Below are positions 10,316 through 46,500 of a stretch of 64,000 bases of DNA, in pieces. The translations under genes and the position numbers were made by a program. Location: the IMG/VR virus record IMGVR_UViG_3300044974_001280, positions 62,001 through 126,000 of that record. One strand, given 5' to 3'. Source of the stretch: a virus. Each line of letters begins with the position of its first letter. The first letter of the stretch is position 1. Below the pieces are notes generated by a model. The model was not told where the DNA came from. It ran no database searches and saw only the letters and a list, made by a program, of their open reading frames with translations.

Positions 10316-12775
10316 ATGGGTATTCAGGCAACAGATAGAGACAGGACCCTTTTTCTGAAAGGGTTTAAACTTTCAGATCAAGGAAAAAACGAAGACCCTA
10401 CCTATTTAGGTTTTAAATTCGTTTTTGACTTTGGCACCTTGCCCGTCGATCCCACCTACGGTTGGGCCCCGAGTCCTTTGCTCAGAAAAAATAGCTACAC
10501 CTCCGGTAACGGAGCCTCTTTCGCCTCGGGTCTGGAAAATCCATTTGGCCAACCTCAATATGATTTTGGGGGATCTGGAGGACCAATTTATTATTCTGCC
10601 TATGAATATTTGCTGCAAAGAGAAGCTAATTTTGGTCCTTCAAACAGATTAAAAAGGGCTAATGCCTTACTGCAGTTTCAAGGTTTGTTGAACACTATTA
10701 ACACAAATTCACCTTGGTTTTTTCAGTCTATCACAGGGTTAGATTCCCTGAGCCAAGTCCCTATTTCTGGTTTTCAAACGGAAGAAGGATTTGATGATTT
10801 TAACACTCAAAGGACAGCAGGAAAAAAAATCGAGGTAACCTGTTTGGAATCCATCAACCTGAGAATTTCAGCTCTGGCCAATTTGTACAACCAGGCAGTT
10901 TTTGATGCCGATAATATGAGATGGCTGGTACCTCGCAATTTGCGTAAATTCACGATGTGGATTTTTGTGACCGAAATCCGGAATTTCTTTAAGACCTCTC
11001 GATTGACCGGCTCCTCTACGGTTTTAGCCACTCTTGATAATTTGAGTAACGTGCTGACAACCGATAGAAATCCAGGTTCTAACATTAAGACTACAGATTT
11101 ACCTGGCAACTATTCAGTGAACGGAATTGACTTTCAGCCCATAGAAAACATCTCAGGTAATCCTGGTAATTCTTTCACCAGTTTTGTATCAAATGTTTTT
11201 GGTCAATCGGGTTTACAAAATGATGTAGCTGCTTTTAGAAATCAGCAAGACCAAAGTGGTATTAAACCGGTTTTAGTTTACGAGTGTCAACAGTGTGAAT
11301 TCGACTTTAGTAACAGTACTCCTTTAAAATCTTCGGTGGATATGGGAAGTAGCAGCGCCGAACCGGAAGGACAGAGTTTTACTATCCATATTGGTAAAGT
11401 AAGAACCAAGAATCAATATCCTAACATCAGACAAGATAAAAAACCTTTGATTCTGGCAGACGGTGCGACTCAGGATCGTTCCTCTGTCGAAATCAGCGAT
11501 GATTCCCTCTCTGTAGAAGCTATTGCCTCTCTGGGGAATGAGTTGATTACCAATTTTACTTCGGCGGCTGTCAATGATTTAATCAATGAAGGAATCAATC
11601 AGTTCGTTTCCCCAGCCTTAGGTGGGATTAGTCAGGGATTACTAGGAAACATTTATTCATTCAATCCTTCGGAACTCGGTCGTCTGTTCGGCACAAACGG
11701 GTTTACCTTTAACGGGGCCCAAGATTTTCTAAATGGAGCGGCAGACGTGGGCATCGATAACATTTTCAAAGGAGACTTACCAAATCCCCAGAAATTAGGT
11801 CTAGGTGGACCTCCCCAGAGGGTTTATCCTCCTCTGTCTCCACCTGAGGACGTTTATCCTAGAGTGCCCGGAACTGATCAGGGGGTTCCCGATAGAGTCT
11901 ATCCAGCCCCGGGTGGGGATGTTTATTCAAACGTACCTGGAGCAGATCTAGGGGTTCCCGGCAGAGTTTACCCAGCCCCGGGTGGAGATGTTTATTCAAA
12001 CGTACCTGGAGCAGATCTAGGAGTTCCAGATAGAGTCTATCCAGCCCCGGGTGGAGATGTTTATTCAAACGTACCTGGAGCAGATCTAGGGGTTCCCGGC
12101 AGAGTTTATCCAGCCCCGGGTGGAGATGTTTATTCAAACGTACCTGGAGCAGATCTAGGAGTTCCAGATAGAGTCTATCCAGCCCCGGGTGGAGATGCTT
12201 ATTCAAACGTACCCGGAGCAGATCTAGGAGTTCCAGATAGAGTCTATCCAGCCCCGGGTGGTGATGTCTATCAAGATGTACCTGGAGCAGATCTAGGAGT
12301 TCCCGATCGGGTTTACCCAGCCCCGGGTGGTGATGTCTATCAAGATGTACCTGGAGCAGATCTAGGAGTTCCAGATAGAGTCTATCCAGTCCCGGATGGT
12401 GATGTCTATCAAGATGTACCTGGATCAGATCTAGGAGTCCCCGATCGGGTTTATTCTGCCCCTGCTATCAATGTCTATGAAGACCAAATAAATCCCAGTT
12501 CACTACAGCCGGAGAGGATTTATCAGCAAGAACTCCTACAAAACATTGCAGGGGAATTAAGATCTCCTGAAAATTCTTTTTCTCAACCACCAAGTCCGGT
12601 TTACGAATCCCCCAGATTTCAAACCCCCGTCGGAAATTTAGGTCAAATTTATCCCGTAACAGTTGGGGATTTTATCGTAGAACCCCCTCTAAATCTAGGG
12701 AACAATAAACCGGAGAACAAGTTTAATATTAGTTTAGGAACTTTTAATCCTCCACAGGAAGAAGTTGAACCTTAA
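10316..12775 (+). CDS. Virion structural protein with 23-residue proline-rich repeats
   Basis: An 819-residue tail or baseplate protein. The N-terminal ~360 residues are folded, with INLRISALANLYNQAVFDA, then RNLRKFTMWIFVTEIRNFF, and later a tube-like segment (VLVYECQQCEFDFS). A helical and Gly-rich section follows. Then come eight near-identical 23-residue repeats (RVYPAPGGDVYSNVPGADL plus GVPD or GVPG) flanked by decayed copies. The C-terminus is Pro-rich. The repeat zone is probably an extended flexible arm or linker. It lies between the hub and spike genes, so a baseplate or tube-junction role is likely. Confidence 0.65.
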   Translation: MGIQATDRDRTLFLKGFKLSDQGKNEDPTYLGFKFVFDFGTLPVDPTYGWAPSPLLRKNSYTSGNGASFASGLENPFGQPQYDFGGSGGPIYYSAYEYLLQREANFGPSNRLKRANALLQFQGLLNTINTNSPWFFQSITGLDSLSQVPISGFQTEEGFDDFNTQRTAGKKIEVTCLESINLRISALANLYNQAVFDADNMRWLVPRNLRKFTMWIFVTEIRNFFKTSRLTGSSTVLATLDNLSNVLTTDRNPGSNIKTTDLPGNYSVNGIDFQPIENISGNPGNSFTSFVSNVFGQSGLQNDVAAFRNQQDQSGIKPVLVYECQQCEFDFSNSTPLKSSVDMGSSSAEPEGQSFTIHIGKVRTKNQYPNIRQDKKPLILADGATQDRSSVEISDDSLSVEAIASLGNELITNFTSAAVNDLINEGINQFVSPALGGISQGLLGNIYSFNPSELGRLFGTNGFTFNGAQDFLNGAADVGIDNIFKGDLPNPQKLGLGGPPQRVYPPLSPPEDVYPRVPGTDQGVPDRVYPAPGGDVYSNVPGADLGVPGRVYPAPGGDVYSNVPGADLGVPDRVYPAPGGDVYSNVPGADLGVPGRVYPAPGGDVYSNVPGADLGVPDRVYPAPGGDAYSNVPGADLGVPDRVYPAPGGDVYQDVPGADLGVPDRVYPAPGGDVYQDVPGADLGVPDRVYPVPDGDVYQDVPGSDLGVPDRVYSAPAINVYEDQINPSSLQPERIYQQELLQNIAGELRSPENSFSQPPSPVYESPRFQTPVGNLGQIYPVTVGDFIVEPPLNLGNNKPENKFNISLGTFNPPQEEVEP
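11894..12445 (+). repeat. Eight tandem 69-bp coding repeats
   Basis: Eight 69-bp units encode RVYPAPGGDVYSNVPGADL followed by GVPG or GVPD. Units 1-4 alternate G, D, G, D at the last position, so a two-unit (138-bp) block appears to have duplicated. Units 6-8 carry YQDVPG in place of YSNVPG. One decayed copy lies on each side (from about 11819 and up to 12514). Confidence 0.9.
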
Positions 12776-13464: not shown

Positions 13465-16131
13465 ATGTCAGCTCTTCCAGATAGGATTTTATCTCCAGAG
13501 CAAGTTCAGCAGATCGTCGAAAAATCGCTGGAGACCTTCTCGAAAATAACAGGTCAAGATAACTTGAAAAGTTCTTCTCCTCAATTTTTAGGAATTGGGG
13601 TTTTGGTTTTTTTAGAAATTAAAACTTTTGAAAGAACCCTGGCCCTATTATTGTCTCCTCTGATTCTGGGCAATAAAATAGTTTCAGAAGCTTTAACCTT
13701 AGCTAGACCTCTTAGATTTATCAGAGAAAATTTGGGTCAAGTTCAAGAGATAATACAAAATCCGATTCAATTTGTCCTAGATGAAGGTATCAACGATAAT
13801 TTGAAAGATTTTCCCTTTCCGTTATATCTGTGGTGGAAAAAATCAGGTTCCCCTAACATCGAACTTTTAAATGGATTGATAGAAGAAAACTCAGAGCCCT
13901 CCGCATTACCAGAGAGTGAATTCAATTACACTTTGATAACAGGGGATTTTGAAAACCCAGCTCCTGGGTTTATAACTTCGTCGGATCCCGACCCTGCTAA
14001 TCTAACCTCGGTCAAGATCAGTTCTACTAGTATAAATCCAGATGAAAATCCACCTTTGAGTTTTCTACAGCCTGGGGACATCATTTCAATCGATGCTATA
14101 GGTTTTCAAACGGCCTATTCTGTCTCTGCCATCGAAGAACAACCCGGCTATTCTCTCTTGCTCCTGCAGAGGGTTGCCTCAAACTCTCAAGATCTTCCGG
14201 CCACAGACAGAACTGTTTATTCCCCCAATACTCAAAGCTCCTCGATTCGGATCAATCGCAGAATTTCTTTTCGTAGATTTTTAACACCCGAAGGCACCAT
14301 TATTGTTCCTTTCAGTGAACTTGGAATTTTGTTTCCTCTGGTCAGAGACATCTCCCTTGAGATTGGAAATTTCGATAAACTGTCTCCGGACAACCCTTCC
14401 CGTCTTTTGATCGATTTTTTTGAAACCAGAAGTGGTTTAGATTTCAATAAGGTACTTCTAGATATGTCCAAGGGAATTTACCCGGAGATAGATTTGGAGG
14501 CTTTACAGAATGGAGACGAGCTTGAATTTTATAAACAGCAACTCGTCTCTGTGGTTAAATTAGTGGATCTAGGCATTCAGAATCCTTTTTTCTTGGTCAA
14601 AATCATTCTAAATTATTTTGTACTTCTTGCGTTACCTTTCAAGGCCTTAGTTGGAGCCATGTCCCTAGTTGGGCAGAAAATTTTGAACCCTGTTGCTCTT
14701 ATTCAATTTGTCTTCGAAAATTTGGCCGACCCTGGAAAATTTTTCTGCAAAATTCTAGGTCAGTCTTTTATTGATTTTCTTCAGCCCTTGATCGAGCCAC
14801 AGATTCCTGCTGATATCGGGTGGAAAAATTTAGTTCAAGACCCCAATGATTCCAACAAAGGTTTTCTACCTCTTTTTACTGATCTGGTGTGTGGTGACTA
14901 TCAGAGAAAATTATCTCAATATCAGCCCAATGAAGCTTTTTTTGCCCAACAGGGAGCTACGCCAACGTCTCCTGAACCCAATCCAAGTATTCAATTGGAT
15001 TACACCAAGACCGATGATTTTATTCCTTCGGCTGGAGAAATTTCATACGGGGCTTCATCCTTAGCTGAAGTTACGACTTTCAGGGTCAGTACTTCCACTT
15101 CAAACGTGGATTCAAGTACTGCATATTTGCTTTCCTTAAAACCAGGGGATCAATTTTATCTGTCCACTTCGGAGGGTTTCCAGTATTATAGGCTGCAAAA
15201 TAGAACTCTGGTCTCCGGGGAGCAAGCAACTTTCTTTGAACTGAACGTTACCCCAATTTCAGAATCTGTTGTTCTGGAACAAAGATTAGCGGGTTTTAGA
15301 AGCACTGTCGCTCCAACGGGGATAAGTTCAGAACTTCAGGCTTCTTTAAACATCGATAACCCGGATCGAGAATTTTTGTTTATTATAGAAAATTATCTTC
15401 CGCCTAGAGCTATTTTTATCTGGGATGGGATTAAAGGAGTCCTAAGTTTGGCCATAGGGCTGGCAAATACCTCTCCGGCCTTAATCCGAACCATCCTGTC
15501 TGAACTTATCAAATCATCAGGATCTGAACAAATCTCTAGTCCTACGAACGTTTCTGCTTCTCTGGTTGCCTCTTTGATCAACACCAATAGGTTGAATGAT
15601 AGAGGGAATTATGAATCGAACGAGGACCGAGATGCGGCCCGAGAATTTCTTTATGAGTTAGTCGTCCAGAATGGTCCTGACGTTGGTGGATTCATCCAAA
15701 GGTATTTTTCTGATTTGCAACAGTCCAGAACAGAGGAGGGTTTACCAACTGTTGTTTATAAATCCGAGTTAACTCCACCTCAGGCCAATGAACTTTTAAA
15801 GTCCACGTATTCTCTGTCTCAATTGGGAGAACACATCGAGGTTTTGACCCGAATTCTGTATGAATTAACTCCCTATGATAGACCTGGAGATCTCATTCCT
15901 AAATCAACTCCTTTACCGACTGTTTATGCTGTATCTGACCAGGGACTGAGGTATGTTCTGGCAGAAGGGAGTCTTTGGAGAGCCTTTGAAATCTGGAATT
16001 TACTGACAGCAGGAGTGCTTGATCAAACAGAGAACAGAGTTCAGGTGGGCGCTTTCAGACAAGCCGTCCTAAATAATCTGAAATTTATCAATGAAGTTCT
16101 GCTGCCCAAGATTTTTGAAGTTGAGAGTTAA
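13465..16131 (+). CDS. Large baseplate-region protein with duplicated beta domain
   Basis: An 888-residue protein I cannot assign to a family. Hydrophobic helices occur near residues 42-75 and 375-410. Two similar beta domains are inserted in the helical body: one around residues 170-245 (SFLQPGDIISIDAIGFQTAY) and one around 530-605 (LSLKPGDQFYLSTSEGFQYY), both sharing 'LxPGDxxxxxxxxFQxxY'. The C-terminal ~140 residues are helical. It follows the spike gene by 3 bases and ends the first baseplate block. A baseplate or tail-length-related role is inferred from position only. Confidence 0.55.
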   Translation: MSALPDRILSPEQVQQIVEKSLETFSKITGQDNLKSSSPQFLGIGVLVFLEIKTFERTLALLLSPLILGNKIVSEALTLARPLRFIRENLGQVQEIIQNPIQFVLDEGINDNLKDFPFPLYLWWKKSGSPNIELLNGLIEENSEPSALPESEFNYTLITGDFENPAPGFITSSDPDPANLTSVKISSTSINPDENPPLSFLQPGDIISIDAIGFQTAYSVSAIEEQPGYSLLLLQRVASNSQDLPATDRTVYSPNTQSSSIRINRRISFRRFLTPEGTIIVPFSELGILFPLVRDISLEIGNFDKLSPDNPSRLLIDFFETRSGLDFNKVLLDMSKGIYPEIDLEALQNGDELEFYKQQLVSVVKLVDLGIQNPFFLVKIILNYFVLLALPFKALVGAMSLVGQKILNPVALIQFVFENLADPGKFFCKILGQSFIDFLQPLIEPQIPADIGWKNLVQDPNDSNKGFLPLFTDLVCGDYQRKLSQYQPNEAFFAQQGATPTSPEPNPSIQLDYTKTDDFIPSAGEISYGASSLAEVTTFRVSTSTSNVDSSTAYLLSLKPGDQFYLSTSEGFQYYRLQNRTLVSGEQATFFELNVTPISESVVLEQRLAGFRSTVAPTGISSELQASLNIDNPDREFLFIIENYLPPRAIFIWDGIKGVLSLAIGLANTSPALIRTILSELIKSSGSEQISSPTNVSASLVASLINTNRLNDRGNYESNEDRDAAREFLYELVVQNGPDVGGFIQRYFSDLQQSRTEEGLPTVVYKSELTPPQANELLKSTYSLSQLGEHIEVLTRILYELTPYDRPGDLIPKSTPLPTVYAVSDQGLRYVLAEGSLWRAFEIWNLLTAGVLDQTENRVQVGAFRQAVLNNLKFINEVLLPKIFEVES

Positions 16132-16142
16132 TTTTCATTGAG

Positions 16143-16150
16143 GATATATA
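16143..16150 (+). promoter_or_regulatory. Putative late promoter element
   Basis: GATATATA (within GGATATATAG), 25 bases before the S1-domain gene at 16176. Confidence 0.5.
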
Positions 16151-16175
16151 GAGCGTCATTTTAAACTCTTATCTA

Positions 16176-17339
16176 ATGAATTCTATTTTCGAACTCAAAA
16201 AAATCGAAGTTCCATTTTTTGACTGGTCCATTCCCAATAAATTCAAGGTGAACCAGAAATTAAAAACACACAAAGACTGTAAGGTCTATTGTCATGCCCC
16301 TTATGCCGAAGAGCTTTATCGACACATGATGGGTTCTGTCTCGGGGGTCAATGCAGGAAAAGACCTCGTCCCTGGCAATCTTTACGAATGCCGTGTTTTC
16401 TTAGTAACTGAAACCCACGCCTTGGCTCAGACCAGGGCAGGTCAAACCGTGTATATCGATCTTAAGAAGGAGGACAAAGATGCCCACAGATTGGGTATCT
16501 CGGGTATTGATTTTACCGTGGGTACCGACATTCAAGCCACCGTACGTCAAATTGGCCCCTCTTACTACGGCTCTGTGGTAGAAAGCTACATCCAAGGTCT
16601 CAAGGCAGAGTTTTTCGATCAAATCAAGAAAGAGAGTATTGCCTACGAGGCCAAAGTTGAATCTGTCAATAAAGGAGGTTACATCGTTGATGTAAACGGT
16701 ATTAAGTGTTTTCTGCCTGGGTCTTTAGCTGCTGCTAACAAGATCACCGACTTCGATGCCTACATCGGAAAAACTTTTCACGTCATGATCGATGGCTATG
16801 TTCAAGAAAAGGACATATTTGTTGTTTCTTACAAAAAATACATTCAAAAGATCATGGATCAAAAGATCCAAGAACTAGATCTGATGAAAAAATATAAGGG
16901 GCACGTCACTGGTACTTCGGCCTTTGGAGTCTTTGTTGAGTGGGAAGAAATCTACACGGGATTGATTCATAAAACAGAATTCGAGAATCAGATTGTGATA
17001 GGGTTTAAACCAGGAGACGAGATAGAGTTTTACATCAAAGAAATCAAGGATGACAATAAGGTTACCTTGACTTTTGGAGAACCTATTGAAAAAACCAAAA
17101 AAGTTTACGAGCTCAAAAAGAATGTTGACGAGGGAGTGGCCGAAGTTATCACCGCCTTGGTCAAATACCGCAGAAAGAACGGAGCCTTGATAGAATTAGT
17201 ACAAGAAGGTTTATTGGCTATGATTCCTCAGGACAAACTGGGAAAAGAGAGCAAAAACATGAAGACCGGAGATGAAATTCAAGTTAAGGTTTATGCCGTT
17301 GATCCTGTGATGAATAAAATTTACGCCATGCCAGCCTAA
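16176..17339 (+). CDS. Ribosomal protein S1-like multi-S1-domain RNA-binding protein
   Basis: A 387-residue protein with at least three S1-type OB-folds. Domain A, about 155-220, includes YEAKVESVNKGGYIVDVNGI and CFLPGSLA. Domain B, about 237-300, includes YKGHVTGTSAFGVFVEWEEI, then TGLIHKTEF and FKPGDEIEFYIKEI. Domain C, about 318-385, includes ALIELVQEGLLAMIPQDKLG and MKTGDEIQVKVYAV. A degenerate fourth may span 66-140. S1 proteins bind mRNA and bring it to the 30S subunit; cellular S1 usually has four to six domains. Here it heads a small operon, with its TAA overlapping the next ATG (TAATG). A role in steering host ribosomes to phage mRNA is an inference. Confidence 0.8.
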   Translation: MNSIFELKKIEVPFFDWSIPNKFKVNQKLKTHKDCKVYCHAPYAEELYRHMMGSVSGVNAGKDLVPGNLYECRVFLVTETHALAQTRAGQTVYIDLKKEDKDAHRLGISGIDFTVGTDIQATVRQIGPSYYGSVVESYIQGLKAEFFDQIKKESIAYEAKVESVNKGGYIVDVNGIKCFLPGSLAAANKITDFDAYIGKTFHVMIDGYVQEKDIFVVSYKKYIQKIMDQKIQELDLMKKYKGHVTGTSAFGVFVEWEEIYTGLIHKTEFENQIVIGFKPGDEIEFYIKEIKDDNKVTLTFGEPIEKTKKVYELKKNVDEGVAEVITALVKYRRKNGALIELVQEGLLAMIPQDKLGKESKNMKTGDEIQVKVYAVDPVMNKIYAMPA

Positions 17340-18730
17340 TGAATTCGCACTTCCAGAAGGCCCAGGCTCTAACCTCGGTCGTTTTAGGTTTTGAATTTGA
17401 GTTTTACTCCGAGATGACTCGGGGAAGAATAGTTGAATCACTGTCGAAGGAGCTGGGCAAAAAAGTTCAGCTCTCTTCTAAATATCATTCTAAAATACCG
17501 GTTACTTCCTCGAGTTTTAAATTGGAACCCGATTATTCAGGAGGTAATAACATGAACGAATTGATCACAGGTCCCTTGCCCTATTCAGAAGCTATTCCCA
17601 TTTTAATCAAGACCCTCAGATGGATAGACGCCCATGGCTGGACCACAGATAAATGTGCCTTTCAGTTCTCTATCAGTTTTGACCCTCGAAACAGAGCCCT
17701 GGAAAAAATTGAAAAACTAGATAGACTGAAATTCATCCTGGGGATTGATGAGGGAGTCATCTATTCTCAATTCGGCAATCGGACTGGCAATGTTTATGCC
17801 AAATCAATCAAAAAAATCGTGCCCAGAAATAGGTTTTCTATTTTAGAGAACATTTCTAGCATAGATCCCAAACTCTTTAAAACCCCCGATGAAAAATATT
17901 ACGGAGCTAATTTTTCCAAACTGCCCAAAGGCTACTTGGAAATCAGATATCTAGGAGGCACGGACTACGAAAAGAAAATCCCGGCCATCCGAGAAGTTGT
18001 CGATTACGTGTCACTATTTCTCCATGACATCTTGTCTGGCAAAAGAGGATACACTCGTCAGGATCTGGAAAAACTCCAGGAGATGATGAGACAACACACA
18101 AAGGTGGTCAAAAGCTTTTCTAATCCAGATTCTTTCTTCTCCAATTTTCCGGATTTTCACGTCCTGATCGATCTCAAGGGCTACGAGGAAAACGTTAAAA
18201 CCTACTGGTCCCACATCAGAGAGAAGATTTTTGATCTCATCGTAGAAGGAGGAGTGACCTCTTGTTTCTTTAATTACGACACCTCCATCGGTCGATTTCA
18301 GATTAAGGATGCCAAGAGCAGGAATGGATTGATTATCAAAGATCTGGACATCTTCGACTCCTCCTTTAAAAATGCGAAACTTGAAAATTGCAAAATTTAC
18401 AGCTGTCAAATCAAGGACGCAGAGCTGCATAACTGCGAGTTGATGACCAGCTCTAAGATCAAAGATTCTAAATTTCAGAATTCTATTGCCAACTACGGCA
18501 ACCTCTTGGAGGATTGCTACATCGACTGTCCCGGTCAAAACATCGACTGCCAGATCAAAGGAGGTATTCTCAGAAATGGTGATCTGGGCAGAAATGCTCT
18601 GGTGAGTGAGCAGACCCAGAAGGTGAAGGATTTCAACGACATCAGAAATAATCGCTTTATTACCGATTCCAGGCTCAAAAATCTGAACGATCCGGTGAAG
18701 AAAATCAGATTCAAAAATATCAACTACTGA
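17339..18730 (+). CDS. Amidoligase-like protein with C-terminal beta-helix-like repeats
   Basis: A 463-residue protein. The N-terminal part has hallmarks of the amidoligase family (glutamine-synthetase fold): LGFEFEFYSE with E19 and E21, then KLEPDYSGG, NELITGPLPYSEAIPIL and, near residue 198, GYLEIRYLGGTDYEKK. Such enzymes join an amine to a carboxylate using ATP. The usual His-x-His strand is replaced by CAFQFSISFD, so activity is uncertain. The C-terminal ~80 residues repeat five-residue-like steps (CKIYSCQIKDAELHNCEL and on), suggesting a pentapeptide-type beta-helix. It is translationally coupled to the S1-domain gene and sits among tail genes, so it could modify or cross-link a virion or host protein. 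Confidence 0.65.
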   Translation: MNSHFQKAQALTSVVLGFEFEFYSEMTRGRIVESLSKELGKKVQLSSKYHSKIPVTSSSFKLEPDYSGGNNMNELITGPLPYSEAIPILIKTLRWIDAHGWTTDKCAFQFSISFDPRNRALEKIEKLDRLKFILGIDEGVIYSQFGNRTGNVYAKSIKKIVPRNRFSILENISSIDPKLFKTPDEKYYGANFSKLPKGYLEIRYLGGTDYEKKIPAIREVVDYVSLFLHDILSGKRGYTRQDLEKLQEMMRQHTKVVKSFSNPDSFFSNFPDFHVLIDLKGYEENVKTYWSHIREKIFDLIVEGGVTSCFFNYDTSIGRFQIKDAKSRNGLIIKDLDIFDSSFKNAKLENCKIYSCQIKDAELHNCELMTSSKIKDSKFQNSIANYGNLLEDCYIDCPGQNIDCQIKGGILRNGDLGRNALVSEQTQKVKDFNDIRNNRFITDSRLKNLNDPVKKIRFKNINY

Positions 18731-29300: not shown

Positions 29301-30056
29301 AGATCTATCTCAGGAACTTATGTTGATGAATTTTCCACTGTTTCTTTGGATAGTTCAACGGTCCAATCTCCTCTTGTTTTTTCAGTCTATCCAAATTTAG
29401 ATCTGTTCCTAGCAGGTTCCGTAACAGGTCAAACCGGACCAACTGGACTTCCATATCCCCCTCTGGATGGATTTCCTTTTGTTTCTTTTTCTGAGAGCTA
29501 TAAGGCACCCAAAGGGATAGATCTAGGTAACATTATTTCTAGAGCTGGGTCCGGAGCTTGGACCTGGGCCGATGTTCATAATTCAGAGAGAGATTTATAC
29601 GTGCCCATGCTTTCCACTGTTTTCTTTTCAAACTACGGATCCCAAATTTTCGGAAAACAAAATAACAGATGGGTGCTGACCGACGCCAGAAATGGGAATG
29701 TTATTCTGGATGTTAAATTCACCCCTTATTTTATTTACACCTTTACCTCCTCGGGCTACTACAGTTTACAAAACACTGTTGAAGATGCTGCCGGCAACAT
29801 TTACGAAATTTCAAAACCTGCTTTCATCAAGGTTGTAAACCAATCAATTCCTAGAGCCGATGACCCTAACCCTTTGCTGGTAAATTCCGCCGACTATGGA
29901 TACATTAAACCCTCCAAAGAATTACAAAACCAGATTTGGGAACTCAATCAGGATCTTCTAGAAGAACAGATAGTTATCAGAAGAGAAAGCGCCATTCCTT
30001 TTGGCTCGGGACTGGTCATTAAAAGTGATGCTAATTCAACTTTTAGGGAAACCTAA
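26388..30056 (+). CDS. Tail fibre/adhesin-like protein with propeller repeats
   Basis: A 1,222-residue protein. The first ~380 residues contain propeller-type blades: AENIWAVGRDLSLFNGQDWE and, most clearly, GNYWLGTDSGLTYWDGKKFY, which follows the 'GNxWxGTxxGLxxxDG' repeat of Bacteroidota sensor kinases. The middle is Ser/Gly/Thr-rich with collagen-like bits (TGVTGPTGGPIG). The C-terminal 180 residues are Ig-like and share a pattern with the end of the preceding gp7-like protein. A surface-exposed tail protein, perhaps receptor-binding, is likely. Its stop overlaps the convergent phoH stop by 4 bases. Confidence 0.6.
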   Translation: MAFYILEAATDSAENIWAVGRDLSLFNGQDWEYFNSSNSVVPDNSPYYLDTRTISIDEYDVKWVGCAIAPSTSQVLVFSVANTDAATGSNWTLSDFNLPPGGLWEVGEIYASPYGDEVLAYITGLNGGAGTGATCTPGITGGYLWRYNKVLQEWSEVAPGYIWPTIYEIAAKGLDGVNWEYYLATSDGLQIIPPGTLDYEVLQDGTFFLPGLKKLNPYNSSVPTSQVYSISFDENGNYWLGTDSGLTYWDGKKFYNWTVPLNNSVTKVTSRPYGHVFFRCGDPFFDLSLSDGFFHFNGDSFSQFNTGNSALPSDRVVDLLLVHNKVEKNGLSVYPNDLWVVNGNNVTLFDYNLPHVYASSNYTGTTGWNFLYYTPGSTGATTDAANLPKTQRYDWVYPSWQGYDNQKIVLNHPGMDPRSLFLTTNFKDLANGQAENQNYWNWGSVPTYDQSLTAGRIPSSDWVVGITGSSSPFLTQPSISLTATTRYSHLNVVGGFMIGENAYLGASSNTEDFVLQNTNDTSFFPGNEFMGFLSFYTDGGQVQGAIPFRGANTKILDVKRSFDGKTVYALGIYNYFLEAGKFTWGSSYPTAGGMSVTGVTGPTGGPIGFSNMASPGATSDYSYPWILNAPTSATSGLYIPDFSVVNDTTAFFIAEIDYEIGNQISYGGIDFSSETASEVFCLKKFRYFPGASSDYDTQTGGPTGYFPSGVNYPGTASLAVGENSIRIMGNIQGGFATLARDYENILDAPSCPSFFFSSISGGSYTNSSFVLELNEDFSLRGVQTIGMTGPNSYTDTISTVPNAQTFLLSGTSTSDVSYGNLNLTHPNPGFCFPWILLSLPSFTGITGSFISNHTSNGSSFPSWRPTIGTFSSDSSYYAGFIYTGNAITTSGSTSLTFEGASGALSVGLLSISPGGIVRQESSYEILPSSYQAVDSSFLSGVQGLSTGDSYYLSVFYPTVPGVTGGGNHIFKRSISGTYVDEFSTVSLDSSTVQSPLVFSVYPNLDLFLAGSVTGQTGPTGLPYPPLDGFPFVSFSESYKAPKGIDLGNIISRAGSGAWTWADVHNSERDLYVPMLSTVFFSNYGSQIFGKQNNRWVLTDARNGNVILDVKFTPYFIYTFTSSGYYSLQNTVEDAAGNIYEISKPAFIKVVNQSIPRADDPNPLLVNSADYGYIKPSKELQNQIWELNQDLLEEQIVIRRESAIPFGSGLVIKSDANSTFRET

Positions 30057-30757
30057 AATTTTCCTTTGTTACTTCCGGTTCCTCCAGTTCCCCGGTACTT
30101 CCATTCCTCGTATCTTTTGACGATTTCTTTTAGAATTTTACTTCTGACGATGTCATCATCTGTAAAGACGAATTCTCCTACCCCCTCTACATCTCTTACC
30201 ATATCTACGAACATGGGCAAAGCAACTTTCTCGTATGAGATGTCGTGCTGAGTTACGTCCCCTGCTAGTAGAACTTTAGAATCGTTGCCCAGTCTAGAAA
30301 CATAAAGCATGAGTTGCTTCATATCACAATTTTGAGCCTCATCCAGAATCATCATGGATTTATCAAAGGTTGCTCCCCTGAGATAGGCTAGAGGTCTAAA
30401 TTCAATCTGCTTTTCAATGAAAAGCTGAGCTAATTTTTCTTTGGAAATGATTTTTTCCATGGTGATCAGAAAACTTTCCATGTAGGGACCTATTTTATCG
30501 TTGACGTCTCCTGGTAAAGAACCTAGTTTTTCCCCTGATTCCTGGATCGGCTTAGTGAAAATAATTCTTTCAATCTCAGATTTCTGTAAAAGCTTCAAGG
30601 CTGTGTAACAGGCAGAAAATGTTTTAGAAGTTCCTGCAGGTCCCCAACAAAAGGTTATGGTGTTGTGGATGATGGTGTCAGAGTAGAGTTTTTGCTTAGG
30701 AGAAAGAGAAATATCTCTAAAATCTTTGTTAACGAGTTTTGATTTTCCGATGGGCAT
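30053..30757 (-). CDS. phoH: PhoH-like P-loop ATPase
   Basis: A 234-residue PhoH-family ATPase on the minus strand. Walker A is GPAGTSKT at residues 39-46 (the usual second-last Gly is Ser). FTKPIQESGEKLGSLPG and YLRGATFDKSMMILDEAQN (Walker B with D139 and E140) are family hallmarks, and LAGDVTQ follows. PhoH proteins are common in phages; an RNA helicase or phosphate-stress role is proposed but not settled. It converges on the propeller protein and diverges from the gene at 30817, sharing a palindromic promoter-like element with it. Confidence 0.9.
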   Translation of the reverse strand: MPIGKSKLVNKDFRDISLSPKQKLYSDTIIHNTITFCWGPAGTSKTFSACYTALKLLQKSEIERIIFTKPIQESGEKLGSLPGDVNDKIGPYMESFLITMEKIISKEKLAQLFIEKQIEFRPLAYLRGATFDKSMMILDEAQNCDMKQLMLYVSRLGNDSKVLLAGDVTQHDISYEKVALPMFVDMVRDVEGVGEFVFTDDDIVRSKILKEIVKRYEEWKYRGTGGTGSNKGKF

Positions 30758-37590: not shown

Positions 37591-40500
37591 ATGCCAAATT
37601 GTTATAATTACTTAGTAAGTCAGGTAGGTTTACAAGCAGCAACTTATGATTACCAAGATTGTGTTGATGGGTCAACCGAACAACTTAATGTGGGAGCGGG
37701 TGCAACCGCTTCAATTTGTGCTATAGAAAATTCTGTTTTATTTATTATTGGTGAAGAAGGTGGGGTCTCACAAGAAAGCTCTTGTGGTTCGATTACCCCA
37801 ACTCCCACCCCCTCTATTACTCCCACCCCTACGCCTACACCATCGGTAACGAGTACCGTGACTCCAACCCCTACTCCAACTCCGTGTCTTACTTCGGCTC
37901 CTTGTTATGTCTATGAATATGAAAATTTCGACAATTTTTCAGTTGATCTAGAAAGTTGTTCCTGCCGACAGGAAGTTCTAAGCTTTGGACCTGACCAAGG
38001 ACTTACAGGGGGAACAGGATCTTTTGGTTTTTTTATAGGGGTAGCCCAGCCTGAAGTAAAAGGAGGAACGGCCGATTTCATCGGATCCACGGGACCCATT
38101 CAGAACAGTGTTGTCCCCGAAGATGCATGTTACTGCATGCAAGTTGTTAACATCTCTTACACCCAAACAGGATTTATTTCTTATACGGGTTGTAACAATC
38201 TGACAATATCAACGACGCTCAGCCCTAGAACAAGGATTCAGGTTTGTTATAAGGGGATCAATGCTGCTTTTAATGTAATTCCTGTCCCTGGATATAATTC
38301 AGGTTGTTGGAATACCGTAGTAGGATGTTCCCCAGGGGGTTTTTGTGGTTTTGAATGTAGATGTTATGAGTACAACAACACAACGGGAAATACTATTGCT
38401 GTCAATTATATTGATTGTGAAGGTGCAGTTCAAGCCATTGATCTTTCCACAGGTGATTCGGGAAGGTTGTGTGCCCGGGCAATTGTAGATAACGTTTCTA
38501 TTTTTACTAATGCCACTACTTGCGGATACAACAATTCTGCTCCTCTTTGTACAGGAGGAGTCTGTCCTACTCCTACTCCTACCCCAACCCCCACCCAGAC
38601 TCCTACCAACACTCAGACCCCCACCAATACTCAGACCCCCACCAATACTCAGACCCCTACCAACACCCCGACTCCTACCAACACCCAGACTCCTACCAAC
38701 ACTCAGACCCCCACCAATACTCAGACCCCTACCAACACCCCGACTCCTACCAGCACCCAGACTCCTACCAACACTCAGACTCCTACCAACACTCAGACTC
38801 CTACCAACACTCCAACCTCGAGCGTTACCCCTACCAACACCCAGACTCCTACCAACACCCAGACCCCTACCAACACCCAGACCCCTACCAACACCCAGAC
38901 TCCTACCAACACCCAGACCCCCACCAATACTCAGACCCCTACCAACACCCAGACTCCTACCAACACCCAGACTCCTACCAACACCCAGACTCCTACCAAC
39001 ACCCAGACTCCTAACTCAACCCCTTCTCAAACACCTAGCGTTACGCCCAGCGTAACTCCTACTGTTACCCCTACCAACACCCAGACCCCTACCAACACCC
39101 AGACCCCCACCAATACTCAGACCCCTACCAACACCCAGACTCCTACCAACACCCAGACCCCTACCAACACCCAGACTCCTACCAAAACTCCAACAAACAC
39201 CCCCACAAAAACCCCTAATAACACACCATCACAAACACCAAGCGTCACCCCAACCAATTCACCCACCCCTTCAAATACTCCAACTGTTTCTCCTTCCCCT
39301 GCCGGATCCACTGGATGTCCTCCTCAAGACATTTCTTGGAGTTTTTGGAATTTAAATAATATATTTGATAGGGTAGGTAGATTTTATGAAAATAACAATA
39401 CGGGGAACAGTCAGATTGCCACTGTTACCGTTTCGTCCACTCAACCCAACACTTCCTATTATAATGTTACAAATACCCCATATTTTGCTTTACTTTGTCC
39501 TAAAAATCCCCAGCTGACTGAAGCTTTGGGCCTGAATGTAAATCAGGTAACGGGAACGGAAGTATACACTTTCACTTTCGATAGACCAGTTACGGATCCT
39601 TCTCTAGCAATTTACTCTCTTGGAAGTGGAGGAACAACGGGAGTTGCTCAATTCACCAGTAACTTAGAAATTGTCTGTGTTCTGCAGGACCCAACCCTCT
39701 CTTTCCCATTAACTAAAACTGGTCCTAACGAAGTAACGGGAAATGAAAGTTTTGGAACTATTTATTTTCCAGGTACTCACACATCTATAAGTGTATCGAT
39801 AACTAATGCAATGGCTGTTAATTTCGTTTGGGGTATTTGCACTCAGGAACCCCCACCTTGTGAAGTTGATCTGATTATTGCATACGACATTTCAGTTTCA
39901 GCTGGCACTAACACCCCATACAATGGATCAATCATTGCAGAAAGACTAGTTTCTCTCCAGATAGTCAATAATTTTATCAATGAAATAAATTCGGGTAAAG
40001 TAAGAGTTGCAGCTTATTCTTGGTCAGATGTGTCTCCTGACCCCCAAATTCAGCCTTCTCTGAACAGTTTGCAGTTTTCATCTAATTATAACCAGATCTA
40101 TAATTATTTCTGCCAACAGTCGGTTTCTTATCCTTCCTGTCTGGACTATTCAGGGGTTTCTTTTCCTGGTGGTACCAATCCAGGATTGGGGATTAATACA
40201 GCTATTAGCCTGGCAACTTCCTATGGTAGACCCAATGCCAAGAAAGTTCTTGTTTTAATAGTTGATGGAAATCCGAGTACAAATCCTAGTTCACCTAATG
40301 CTTATCTTTTACAGCAAGCTACACTTTTCAAACAGTTGTCTCTTTATGGCATGCCTGGAACTTCAGAGATAGTTGTCATTGGAGTTGGTGGGAATTCTGA
40401 TGATCCAAATTTTACTGCTTGTTCGGTTAGCATTTCAGGAATTCCTACAGATTTGTGCTATTCATCTGCCTTATATTCCCAAGTTGCTTCCAATGACCCA

Positions 40501-43500
40501 ATCACAGGGAATCCAATGATGATCAACCTGGTGGGTCCAGGCCCAGGTCCTTCTTCCATCCAAAGTCTTTATAACAATACCCCAGGCCTACAAACTATTT
40601 ACAACGCCGCTCTTCAAGCTACTAATTTTATCTGCCCCAATAGCCCCTGTACTCAGGCTAATCTTTTCGTCAATGGGGATTTTCAAAATTCTGTAGCTTC
40701 CCAAACGGGTGGTTCTGTAGTAGGTTGGTCCCTTAGCAACGTGGATGTTAGAAGCATTAGATCAGCTTATTTTCCTAATTTCTTTGGCCCGAATTCAGAC
40801 AACGTCTTTATTAATTTATCCTCCTGTGCAGCCTTTGGGACCGTTCAACAAGCTTTAACACTCACTCCTGGTACTGTCTATATTTTAAGTTATAACATTG
40901 GCGCTAATAAACAAAATCTTGCTGACAATTCTTCGAGAACTGTTCAGGTTAGACTAAATGGGACTTTGTTATCCACTAATAACATACTCCCTAGTGCAGT
41001 AATCGGGACTACTTCCAATAACCCTTTCTTTGATTTTGGATGGGAAACTAAATCTGTTATTTTTACTGCTACCCAAATTTCAAATACTATCCAATTTAGG
41101 GGAAGCTCTCCAAATACTTGTTTCGGACCGGTTTTAGATAATGTTTGCTTGGTTGAGTCCAGTGCTTATCCAGTTCCATCCCCCACTCAGACTCCCTCAC
41201 AAACACCAACTCCCAGCATAACCCCGACAAACACCCCAACTCCTTCTACCACACCAATCATTTGTAATTGCTATAATTACTATAATGATAATGATCCGTG
41301 TCCACTTCCTGTAGTTGCCTGGTCCACTAAGCCTCTATCTGATCTGGGCCCTGGCGATTTTATTTATAACACCCCGAATTTAGCAGATCCTTTTAGCAAC
41401 TCTGCCAATTCTTTTTATGCTTTTGGACAGGACCCGTGTGATTTAGAGCCCCGCTGGCTTTTGCTAGGAACTGCATCGTCGGGACAAATTTCACTGTCTG
41501 GTGTTTGTGATGTTACCCCAACTCCAACCCCCTCCTCAACTCCAACCCCAACTCCTTCCGTATCTGACAATTTAGGAGTGTATACGGTGTTCATGAATAT
41601 CGAAGGGGCTTCGAGTGAGTCTTTTTCAGGAGAACCTGAAATACCAGGACCTACTCAAACCGCTAGTTCAACCCCAACCCCGAGTATCACCGCTTCTCCA
41701 ACCCCAACTTCGAGCGAGACCCCAACTCTAACTCCAACCCCAACGGAGACTGGAACCCCGACTCCAACCCCAAGTGAAACTGCTACTCAAACTCCAACCC
41801 CGAGCGAAACTGGTACCCCGACTCCAACTCCAACTAATAGTTTAACCCCTTCTGAATCTGCAACTCCTTCTCCAACCCCTACCCCAACGGTTACCCCTAC
41901 TGTATCCCCTACTCTTTCTCCTGTTGGTACTTGGTATCCCTTATACGGTAGGGGTAACGGGTACATCACTAGCCAACAAGCCTGTGATGCACATCTAATA
42001 GGTGAGCCTTGCGAGGTTTCATATGCCGATTGCGATCCCTCGGTAAATTTTGTTTCATTTTCTGTGCTTCCGGGGGAAAGTGGAACTTTCTGTGCCCAGT
42101 GGATAGTTTCAGATCCTTGTGATATAGTTTCACAGCAAGGAGGATGCACCAATCCTGGAGGAACTGGGTATATTTGCGCACCTCCTCCTACCCCTACTTT
42201 AACTTCTACTAGTCCTGCCCCTTGTTGTATAACTGCTAATAAATTCATTTCTCCACCCTTTCCTAATAACGTTTTTCCTAGTACAAGTTGGTTGTATAGA
42301 TCAATTAATTGGAATGGTGTTACTATTACAGCTTCAACTACAACACCTAATGCACTGAGAATCGCGGCACCCGAACCTACTTACGGTTGCGACATTCAGC
42401 AAATTATTTTCGATTCCTATAATAACAAATATTCAGGATTGATCGATACTTTCTACTCTTCGCCGGTTAATGCTAATTATACCCTGAATTTCAGCCAACC
42501 AATTTCTACAATTACTTTAAGGATTTTGTACCTTAGTGTAGATGAAAACAGTAATTCAGAGTTTATCTATTTTACAACAAACACTGGAACTCCTAGTCTA
42601 GAACCAGTTATTTGGTGCGGTGATAGATCAAGTTTTGAAATAGGAACCAATGTAAACGGTAGCTATATAAAAAATCTCTTAACAACCGTTCCTGGCAATT
42701 ATGACGATGAGGTTTCTCTGGTTGTGGAAATTAAGAACCCCTTGGGCTTCTCAAGCCTAACCTTAACTAATGTTTGGCCACCTAATCCAGGCAGCAGCAG
42801 TCCAGCGGGAGTTGGTTTTGATATTTGTGAGTGCTCAAACCCTACTGCCACTGTAACCCCGAGTGTCACCCCTACTAACACCCCGACACCTAGTATCACT
42901 CCTACTAACTCCCCAACCCCTAGCATTACTCCTTCTATTAGTGTAACACCGAGCGTCACCCCTACTAACACCCCGACTCCGAGTATCACTCCTACTAACA
43001 CCCCGACCCCGAGTATCACTCCTACTAACACCCCGACCCCGAGTATCACTCCTACTAATACTCCGACCCCTAGTACCACCCCTACCAACACACCAACCCC
43101 GAGTATCACCCCTACCAACACACCAACCCCGAGTATCACCCCTACTAGCACCCCGACCCCGAGTGTTACCCCGAGTGTTACCCCTACTCCTATTATTTAC
43201 GATTGTATCAGATGGTGTATCGCAAACACAAATTCGTATCCCGTTACTATCACTGTTACCAGATGCGATGGCACTTCACAACCTTTTTCCCTTTCTGCTT
43301 TTTCTGAAATCTGCAATATCTGCCTCAGAAATGTGACCACCATTGCGGGTGTTATAGCAACCGATACAGGTAGACTTTGCACTTTCTTACCCAAACTTTT
43401 TGATTACAATTCTTCCTTTGGAGTTCTAAGAACAAATCCAAAATTAACAGGAAATGTGAAATTAACACTGGACTCTAATGGTTCAGTTTGGATGAATTCA

Positions 43501-46500
43501 ATGGATGCAAATCCAGTTCTTAGCGATCAAAGATTCAAAAAATACCGAGTTTCGGGACAAAACGCCTATTCTAAAGATCTGTACAGATTCTTCATGAACG
43601 GAACCGTGCCAGAAAATGTTATTTTTGAAGTTGCAAAACTTACTGATGGGGAGGACCGGCCAGTGGAAGGCTTTAGCTCTCAGTACGATTTCTTCTATGG
43701 CTCTGGTGCCTCTACACTTGTTGATAGAAATTACAACGAGAATTTCCGGTACTTCCAGCCATTGTGGTTGCGGGATGAGATTCCAGATTTCTTTGTCATC
43801 TTTAAAATCCCGGGGCCTTTGAGTTATCCGTATTCGACAAACCAAACCGAAATTCTGAGCGGGACCCAGTACAAAATTATTCAAGACGTCAATTCACCTG
43901 ATCCTTTTGTCATCTCTTATGGGGTTGATAATTTTGCCCGGCCTATTTTGTATAGGGCTGGAGAATTTATGGTTGGAAATTCTGTTTACTCAACCTACGA
44001 AATTGTATCAGGATCTGGTAAAGTTGTGCTAATGAACGAGACTCTTTTCCAGCCTGAAGTTGATGACGTTAATTCATACTTCAACAGTAAAATCCTTCCA
44101 AACGCGGCTGCTATAGCAACTTTTGATCTTCGAGAGGACACCGTTATAGGTAAATATATTAGATCTATCATTAACGATCCTGGATTTTCTTCAGCTCCTT
44201 TGGATTTCTCCTATCAGCTTAATGCCTTTACTTACTACCAAGGAGTAGATATCAAAACAGGTAGTTATAGTAAAAAAGGGGAGTTGATGTACGATTTCTT
44301 GATTTCCAACAACTCCACCCCCCAGATAGATTTCGAGAATTATGTGACAGGAGGTTTTGAGAGAAATGGGATCATAATTCCCAATTTATTGAATTTAGAA
44401 TTTCTCTTTAATGATCCTGATTCTGATTTATATTCCATCAACAGATATTTTGGTCTGTATGTTTCCAGAAATGATTTAGGAAGTTTTAAATTGAATGGAG
44501 ATTTCTTCTATCAATATCGTAACCTGTCCGGCAACAACAATCTACCTAAACCTTCCACCAATAATGTCGGATATGCTAGTAGTACTGACCCTAATTATTT
44601 GAGTAGCACGACCGGAGTCAGACTTTTCTATCAAGAGGCAAATTCTTGGATTCCTGGCTCCTATGATGTAAATGTTTTAGAGCCACAGAAGCTTTTCTAT
44701 ATCACCGATAAAAACGACAAATTTTATTCCCTCCTCAGAAATGAAAATTACGATTCCACCACCCAAACTTGGTCCAACAACACCCCGGTAAGTGGTCAAT
44801 TCGGACCTCTTTTGCCTTCTGGTAATTTCGGAACTGAGTCGAATATGGAAATGAAATCCGGTAATTTAGTTGTGTTCAATAGGCAACTAAATCTACTTGA
44901 TTTTACCGGCCCCAATGAAAGAATAGGTGGTTTTTCGGGTTTTTTACCTGAATCTTCCGGTCACGCCAACATTAATATCCAGTTTTTATCAACTTTTAAT
45001 AGCAGTACTCCAGTTACCTTCAAGATCATTTGGCCGAATGGAACTAGAGGACCTTTAAATGAAAAATACGACCTGATTCAATCTTCCTTATTGGGAGGCA
45101 GCGTTCTCAATTGGCAGGCTGGAAGTTCTTATAACAACGGCAACACCCACTATTTCAATTTCTCTCAGGGCCAAACGTCCCAAGTCGCATCTTCGTTTGT
45201 TCAATGTGTTCTCTCCATCAGCAGCACTATCTGGGATTCTGCTAATTCTGACAATAACGCTATCATTAGAGCCAGAAACAGCGGAGCGAATTACAACACA
45301 GATTTTAAGATTGCAGTCTTTTCTGACTATGATTCTTTTGAGTCTTCTTATGCCGGAATTTGGTCCAGCACGGCCGGCTATTCCGCAGGTCAAATTGTCT
45401 CCTATTTTAATGTCTACTACACAGCTTCTTCTGCCATTACAGCCCCAAGTTCCGGCAACACGAATCCTCCTCCTACGGAGGATAACACTTGGCAAAATTA
45501 CTTCACCTTTACAACTTCAGGTCTGATTAAAATTGAGAACTATGACGTTTCAGCTTTAGATAGAAATCTGAATTTCGTTGGTGGTACTGATTTCTCTAAA
45601 TCTAGAGTTGCCTTTTCAATCAACGAGAAAGATAAAATTACCCCTGGCAAATGGATCGAAGTGGAAGGAGGTAGGGGAGTGGTAGGTTCCGTTTCTAGAA
45701 TTTCCTCGGTTACCAGATACGTCGACCGTCCAATCTACAATAATAATCCCTCCTTGACTTCGGGCACCGTGACTGAATTCAGGGGCTACAATGAATTTTT
45801 GGTCGCAAGTTTGGAAGATACTAAAGCTATTATCAGCCTGGGTAGTGATGGCAATTTCAATGTTTGGGATGTAGCTACTCTCTACTCAGGTGCTTTCAGT
45901 TTCTTCGATCTGAAAGATTTTGACTACGATTTTCTATCCTCTAAATACGGAGAAACACCAACCCCTGAATTCCATCGATATTTCCAACTTGTTCCTGATC
46001 AACCTGGTCAAATCGTAGAGGGTGTAAAATACATCGTAAGGAGTGGTGAAATACTGGTTGATAAAGGTTCACCCACGGAGAGGATTTTAGGCCCAGGCTC
46101 TGCCTTTATTGGCACTACGGTCAACTATTTCCAGGATATATTATTCTCTGAAACTGGAACTCTTTCTGTCGTGTATCCAGCAGTTTTCAGCCAGGTTGGT
46201 TGGGTAGACCCTCAGACCCCCTACCCTACAACAATTGTCCCCGAGCAAAATCTGAACTCGTTTGAGGGTTTTTACGGAATTCAATCCATCTCTAACGAAA
46301 TGCCGATCCCAAATCCTCTTGAAAAGGCAGAGTTATTTGAATATGGTAAGCTTGAAACAGAATACCAGTATCTCTGGGAAAACTTCACCCAGACCCGGGC
46401 CAATTTTTCTAGAATAGTGCCTTTCGTGAACAAATGGGGATTCTTAGGTGGCACCGACGCCAGGGGCAATGTTTACAGACTGAATTCTTCTCCTGCATTC

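What the first reader, a model, noticed from the sequence alone, without database searches (positions are those of the whole stretch)
16176..17339. Phage-encoded S1-domain protein in a phage lacking Shine-Dalgarno leaders
Three or four S1 OB-folds are visible. Most genes here have A-rich leaders rather than Shine-Dalgarno sequences, as in Bacteroidota, where initiation is thought to rely more on S1 and leader composition. A late-expressed phage S1-like protein could favour phage mRNAs, compete with host S1, protect RNA, or serve in RNA turnover. It is co-expressed with the amidoligase-like gene, not with translation genes.
Basis: partly seen in the sequence, partly recalled or inferred. Interest (0 to 1): 0.75.

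Follow-up and report, generated by a model that had tools for sequence, protein, structure and literature searches.

The report
Phage-encoded shortened ribosomal protein S1
This large phage carries its own shortened copy of the host's mRNA-gripping ribosomal protein S1, one of several hundred such copies in related phages, probably used late in infection to help ribosomes start on its A-rich messages; the idea is already in the literature, and a control here shows that the missing Shine-Dalgarno signals come from the host and are not what the protein is for.

Summary
ORF 16176-17339 (387 aa) is predicted to fold as four S1/OB domains behind a short helix. Its best sequence and fold matches are ribosomal protein bS1 on the 30S subunit, not RNase E or PNPase. 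The leaders are A-rich and SD-less. At least 560 IMG/VR contigs encode relatives; a scan of 84,980 genomes found one, Lak-like and probably a phage contig. The basic idea, rpS1-like proteins in SD-less huge phages that help initiation, was published by Al-Shayeb et al. 2020.

New here: (1) Five complete jumbo phages with related baseplates, four from Bacteroidota hosts, have no S1 domain but equally SD-less leaders. So SD-lessness is a host trait and does not argue for an S1 function. (2) S1 is followed directly by a glutamine-synthetase-like amidoligase gene in 83 of 92 loci, and a GATATATA element precedes S1 in 44 of 46 near relatives. (3) The E. coli OB2 mRNA-clamp positions carry aromatics in 48/48 phage proteins; Bacteroidota bS1 has Met at one. 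(4) An N-terminal F-x-W motif is shared with Bacteroidota bS1; only the core is convincing.

Best reading: a bS1 substitute or supplement on host 30S, boosting late phage translation (0.5). Untested experimentally.

The parts
16176..17339 (+). Phage bS1-like protein, 387 aa, four OB/S1 folds
   Evidence: Pfam S1 E 2.7e-15; NCBIfam best match rpsA E 6e-22; AF2 model; best PDB fold match bS1 on 30S, E 1.1e-21
16142..16151 (+). GGATATATAG promoter-like element 32 nt before the S1 start; element conserved upstream of S1 in 44 of 46 near relatives
16218..16226 (+). Codons of the F15-D16-W17 motif shared with the N-terminus of Bacteroidota bS1
   Evidence: 33 of 48 viral S1s incl. both Lak rows, 5 of 5 fetched Bacteroidota bS1 (plus chain 9zcd_A by eye), 0 of 1231 other N-termini; the longer 16-mer profile was not significant
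16305..16340 (+). Helix 44-55 before OB1, where bS1 has its uS2-docking helix
   Evidence: AF2 model; Y43 in 45/48 and L47 in 40/48 viral rows; E. coli counterpart from PMC10123108
16380..16574 (+). OB1 (diverged; the ribosome anchor in bS1)
   Evidence: AF2; weak profile match to bS1 OB1 in the near clade; whole-length colinear match in L034
16644..16829 (+). OB2 with the bS1-type KGGY...FLPGS signature; mRNA-clamp positions K166/Y169/F179
   Evidence: hhalign 98.7% to bS1 OB2; next best OB3 at 90.7%; residues
16890..17072 (+). OB3 with the usual S1 RNA-face residues F250/F253/H265
17145..17333 (+). OB4, diverged; lacks the usual aromatic/His RNA face in near relatives; absent in Lak
17339..18730 (+). 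Partner gene: glutamine-synthetase-like amidoligase (Amidoligase_2) with C-terminal pentapeptide-repeat helix; its start overlaps the S1 stop by one base
   Evidence: PF12224; AF2 pLDDT 85.8; Foldseek glutamine synthetases and pentapeptide proteins; S1-to-amidoligase adjacency 83/92 and 66/69 loci

Best explanation
The protein is a virus-adapted, C-terminally shortened bS1 (OB1-OB4, without OB5-OB6). Made late, from its own promoter inside the baseplate cluster, it docks on the host 30S subunit where bS1 normally sits (helix and OB1 to uS2), and its OB2-OB3 grip the A-rich leader just upstream of the start codon. It supplements or replaces the loosely bound host bS1 and so raises initiation on SD-less mRNAs when phage structural mRNAs dominate. 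Shown by sequence or model: four OB folds, bS1-type OB2, conserved RNA-face residues, virus restriction of the clade, own promoter-like element, amidoligase partner. Inferred: ribosome docking, late timing, stimulation, preference for phage mRNA.
For: Best NCBIfam matches are bS1 models (window protein rpsA 6e-22; the orthologue in a 462-kb phage E 1.9e-45, colinear with bS1 residues 27-369). Best fold matches are bS1 on 30S (9gut E 1.1e-21; 9guq, 172 residues, TM 0.73 by target). OB2 clamp K117/F120/F130 of E. coli (PMC10123108) aligns to K166/Y169/F179, aromatic at both ring positions in 48/48. OB3 RNA face kept. F-x-W motif shared with Bacteroidota bS1. A enrichment at -11..-13 lies where bS1 domain 4 is expected and where A promotes initiation in F. 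johnsoniae (PMC6847099). Extra bS1 roughly doubled initiation on one SD-less mRNA with F. johnsoniae ribosomes, on which bS1 is sub-stoichiometric (PMC9976891). Own conserved promoter-like element. Phage bS21, another 30S-platform protein, is expressed late in Bacteroidota phages (PMC9723584).
Against: No expression, binding or infection data. OB1 in the near clade is poorly matched to bS1 OB1 (hhalign 29%), and the uS2-contacting Lys43 and Phe5/Phe9 of E. coli bS1 are not evidently kept. OB4 lacks the usual RNA-face residues in near relatives, and Lak lacks OB4. S1-less relatives manage SD-less translation, and three near relatives lack the gene in the sequence held, so it is helpful at most. 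All members score far below NCBIfam equivalog cut-offs. Nothing shows selectivity for phage over host mRNAs, whose leaders are alike.
Confidence: 0.5

Rival explanations
1. Off-ribosome RNA binder: a free S1 protein that coats, unfolds or delivers phage RNA, or guides RNA turnover (as host S1 activates RegB in T4), without docking on the 30S.
For: OB3 RNA face kept while OB1 is diverged; OB4 and N-terminus vary among clades; no other translation gene found with it: no bS21, no tRNA.
Against: OB1-OB2 order and bS1-type OB2 are kept in all clades, and the F-x-W/helix N-terminus is conserved in the near clade and Lak; no nuclease or other RNA-turnover gene adjoins it.
Confidence: 0.2
2. Competitive inhibitor: a short S1 that occupies the bS1 site on uS2 but lacks OB5-OB6, lowering initiation on host mRNAs that need full-length bS1.
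For: C-terminal truncation relative to host bS1 in every member aligned; shared N-terminal motif.
Against: OB2-OB3 RNA-contact residues are kept or made more aromatic than in the host; phage mRNAs have the SD-less leader type of their hosts, so blocking would harm the phage too.
Confidence: 0.15
3. Virion or baseplate-associated protein, structural or injected with the DNA.
For: Lies in the baseplate cluster, between a hub-OB gene/one variable gene and Ad2/gp25/gp6 in most loci; near tail-tube or tail-fibre genes in four huge phages.
Against: In Lak it sits near tRNA-His guanylyltransferase-like and DnaB genes, in L017 next to nrdAB; L165/L173/L175 keep the cluster without it; own promoter-like element.
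Confidence: 0.08
4. Functional unit with the amidoligase: the S1 protein brings the amidoligase to the ribosome, or is its substrate, so that a ribosomal or RNA-bound protein gets an amino-acid conjugate.
For: Adjacency in 83/92 and 66/69 loci; parallel divergence of the two proteins, 70/76, 61/61, 59/59, 53/52 and 38/38% identity; strongly conserved ligase motifs.
Against: In the 735-, 636-, 642- and 635-kb phages the two genes are far apart; Lak has S1 but no amidoligase hit; three loci have amidoligase without S1.
Confidence: 0.07

Closest known systems
rpS1-like proteins of huge phages (Al-Shayeb et al. 2020, PMC7162821)
   Same: Multi-S1-domain protein in large phages without SD leaders; proposed role in initiation on or off the ribosome. 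Homologues of the window protein occur in Lak and in huge-phage LR74/LR75 records.
   Different: That paper read the SD-less correlation as evidence for function; the S1-less controls here show host leader type explains it. It does not, in the passages read, describe the amidoligase partner, promoter element, domain assignment or clamp substitution.
Cellular ribosomal protein bS1 (rpsA), six OB domains in E. coli and Bacteroidota
   Same: OB1-OB4 order, bS1-type OB2, RNA-face residues; F-x-W N-terminus as in Bacteroidota bS1
   Different: Four domains (three in Lak), about 21-23% identity, long stem branch in the tree, aromatic instead of Met at the Ec F120 position versus Bacteroidota hosts, far below equivalog cut-offs
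Phage-encoded bS21 of Bacteroidota phages (Chen et al. 2022, PMC9723584)
   Same: 30S-platform protein of initiation encoded near structural genes and thought to act late
   Different: Different protein; no bS21 found in this record
bS1 of Microcystis jumbo phage PhiMa05 (PMC13157829)
   Same: Phage-encoded bS1
   Different: There part of a set of six ribosomal proteins with Vampirovibrio-like phylogeny; here alone and long diverged

Membership tests
Ribosomal protein bS1 (rpsA) as orthologue | Score over the curated equivalog cut-off | tested here: not met
   77.8 bits against a cut-off of 577 for TIGR00717; best relative (L034) 155 against 524
Ribosomal protein bS1 (rpsA) as orthologue | Colinear OB1-OB2-OB3-OB4 order beginning with the ribosome-binding domains | tested here: met
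   AF2; Foldseek; colinear bS1 match over residues 27-369 in L034; OB2 assigned to OB2, OB1 assignment weak
Ribosomal protein bS1 (rpsA) as orthologue | Six OB domains as in Bacteroidota and E. coli | tested here: not met
   Four
Ribosomal protein bS1 (rpsA) as orthologue | Binds 30S through uS2 | not testable with these tools
   Only the position of a helix and the F-x-W motif are suggestive
Huge-phage rpS1-like family (Al-Shayeb 2020) | Multi-S1-domain protein encoded by a large phage without SD leaders | tested here: met
   homologous to the Lak and LR74/LR75 proteins
PNPase / RNase R / RNase E S1 domains | Catalytic domain, or best match to those families | tested here: not met
   PNPase only 28 bits, RNase R 18 bits, each over one stretch around OB3; RNase E not among the matches; no catalytic domain
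Virion structural protein | Presence in purified particles | not testable with these tools
   No PHROG match; location is mixed across clades

The most novel reading that the evidence does not exclude
The S1-amidoligase pair is a ribosome-retooling cassette: the short S1 docks on the host 30S with a stronger OB2 mRNA clamp than host bS1 and brings a glutamine-synthetase-like ligase that conjugates an amino acid to a platform protein (bS1, bS6, bS18, bS21 or uS2), making late-infection ribosomes that prefer phage mRNA.
Probability: 0.07. Interest if true: 0.85.

Novelty: new member of a known kind. Interest (0 to 1): 0.45.

Why it matters
How Bacteroidota ribosomes choose start sites without SD pairing, and whether bS1 reads the A-rich leader, is open (PMC6847099). 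A natural, minimal, phage-selected bS1 of four domains, with an altered OB2 clamp, is a ready probe for that question. The S1-less control phages correct a published inference from correlation. The conserved pairing with a ligase points to a possible ribosome modification that could be looked for directly.

Tried and rejected
(1) S1 as explanation for lack of SD: rejected, S1-less relatives are equally SD-less. (2) PNPase, RNase R or RNase E origin: rejected by profile scores. (3) Extended host-mimicry motif: a 16-position profile around the Bacteroidota FNW motif put only 3 of 92 viral S1s over the 1% threshold, so only the F-x-W core is claimed. (4) Donor phylum by tree: bS1 sequences join through a branch of length 3.07, long branches meet, so no donor can be named. 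(5) Phage bS21 or tRNAs in the same record: none found; the record is not proven complete. (6) Essential structural role: weakened by clean absence in L165, L173, L175, though those contigs are fragments.

Full report
Observation. The ORF at 16176-17339 encodes 387 aa with three Pfam S1 stretches (E 2.7e-15), no PHROG match, and PDB sequence matches led by ribosomal protein S1. An AlphaFold2 model from 41 viral homologues (mean pLDDT 82.7, pTM 0.56) has four OB folds and a helix at 44-55. The window is part of a 230,445-base linear viral record with no other S1 protein, no bS21 and no tRNA found.

Leaders. In 238 genes of the record, SD core tetramers occur in 6.7% (shuffled 3.5%); leaders are 46% A and 10% G with a maximum of 61% A at -11. 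In the window alone 9 of 44 leaders hold such a tetramer. The same measure finds 57% in T4 (shuffled 18%).

What it is. The best NCBIfam models are bS1 models, and an orthologue in a 462-kb phage (L034) matches bS1 with E 1.9e-45 colinearly over residues 27-369; all scores are far under the equivalog cut-offs. OB2 is assigned to bS1 OB2 (hhalign 98.7%), OB1 only weakly. Foldseek against the PDB is led by bS1 on the 30S (E 1.1e-21), and a chain of 172 bS1 residues aligns with TM 0.73 by target. Among viral models the best are S1 proteins of Virus NIOZ-UU157 and uncultured phages. PNPase and RNase R score 28 and 18 bits over OB3 only.

Who has it. tblastn finds it in Lak megaphages (33-34%) and huge-phage records (25-36%). 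That scan used one short pattern that may miss cellular bS1, so 'virus-restricted' applies to this clade, not to bS1. In the tree the bS1 sequences sit behind a 3.07-long branch, and the donor cannot be named.

Residues. E. coli bS1 K117, F120 and F130, reported as the OB2 pocket at the SD part of mRNA (PMC10123108), align exactly to K166, Y169 and F179. F179 is kept in 48/48 and position 169 is Tyr or Phe in 48/48. Bacteroidota bS1 has Met at that position: three rows in the alignment and chain 9zcd_A in the printed alignment. In OB3 the usual S1 RNA-face residues F250, F253 and H265 are kept in 38, 48 and 39 of 48. An F-x-W motif near the N-terminus is in 33 of 48 viral proteins, including all of the near clade and both Lak rows; it is in all five Bacteroidota bS1 fetched and in none of E. 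coli, Pseudomonas or Neochlamydia bS1, nor in 1231 other N-termini of the loci. A longer profile of that segment was not significant, so this is suggestive, not proof, of shared docking.

Context. In the near and middle clades the order is hub-OB gene, one variable gene, S1, amidoligase, Ad2-like, gp25, gp6. The amidoligase follows S1 in 83 of 92 loci. Starting from the amidoligase, 66 of 69 testable loci have S1 directly upstream and three do not. S1 and amidoligase diverge in parallel. The partner is glutamine-synthetase-like with a pentapeptide-repeat tail. In distant phages S1 is elsewhere: near tRNA-His guanylyltransferase-like and DnaB genes in Lak, next to nrdAB in L017, near tail-tube or tail-fibre genes in four others. 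An ATATATA element lies within 100 nt upstream of 47 genes of the record, and 51 of 61 sites are not fully inside genes although genes cover 94.6%. Upstream of S1 it is present in 44 of 46 near relatives, against a background of 0.018 per 100 nt. This reads as a phage promoter that serves S1 and the amidoligase separately; timing is inferred.

Control of the SD link. The baseplate wedge protein relates this phage to MaF61 (Flavobacterium), PTm1 and pT24 (Tenacibaculum), MA9V-1 (Chryseobacterium) and PAU (recorded host Sphingomonas). None of these complete genomes has an S1 domain, yet their leaders are equally SD-less and A-rich (0-7% core SD, 48-55% A). So SD-lessness needs no phage S1, and the correlation of rpS1 with missing SD reported in PMC7162821 is probably confounded by host phylum.

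Mechanism. I favour a bS1 substitute or supplement on the host 30S: bS1 is loosely bound and sub-stoichiometric on purified F. johnsoniae ribosomes, and extra bS1 raised initiation on an SD-less mRNA about twofold (PMC9976891); A at -12 and -13 promotes initiation where bS1 domain 4 is expected (PMC6847099). Docking, stimulation and mRNA preference are not shown here. The host being Bacteroidota is itself an inference from leader type and relatives. The rivals are an off-ribosome RNA binder, a competitor, a virion protein and a unit with the amidoligase.

Novelty. The kind is known (PMC7162821). New are the size and domain definition of the family, the S1-amidoligase unit with its own conserved promoter-like element, the clamp difference from host bS1, and the control that removes the SD argument. 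That makes it moderately interesting.

Noticed in passing
record-wide; window 258, 2087(-), 2893, 16176, 19649, 30053(-), 30817, 48968, 53342, 57543, 58551, 62898 starts: RGATATATA element 11-74 nt upstream of 47 genes; looks like a phage-specific promoter, reminiscent in kind of the T4 late promoter.
   Followed up: partly
L165, L173, L175: Near relatives in which the amidoligase-like gene is present without S1 at the usual place or anywhere in the contigs held (18-87 kb); the variable gene before it differs.
   Followed up: partly
window 13465-16131: The gene just before S1 is the most variable of the cluster: 35% and 28% identity to relatives where neighbours keep 49-89%, replaced by unrelated or much longer ORFs in others.
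   Followed up: no
window 11700-12400 in ORF 10316-12775: Tandem repeat of about 23 aa, VPGADLGVPxRVYPAPGGDVYxx, in a baseplate-cluster protein.
   Followed up: no
window 37591-48927: Single ORF of 3778 aa in the tail/structural region.
   Followed up: no
window 30053-30757 (-): PhoH-like ATPase on the opposite strand inside the structural cluster, with back-to-back ATATATA elements shared with the next gene.
   Followed up: no
L035: Contig of a Clostridium MAG bin that encodes a Lak-type S1 protein; probably a phage contig in the bin.
   Followed up: no
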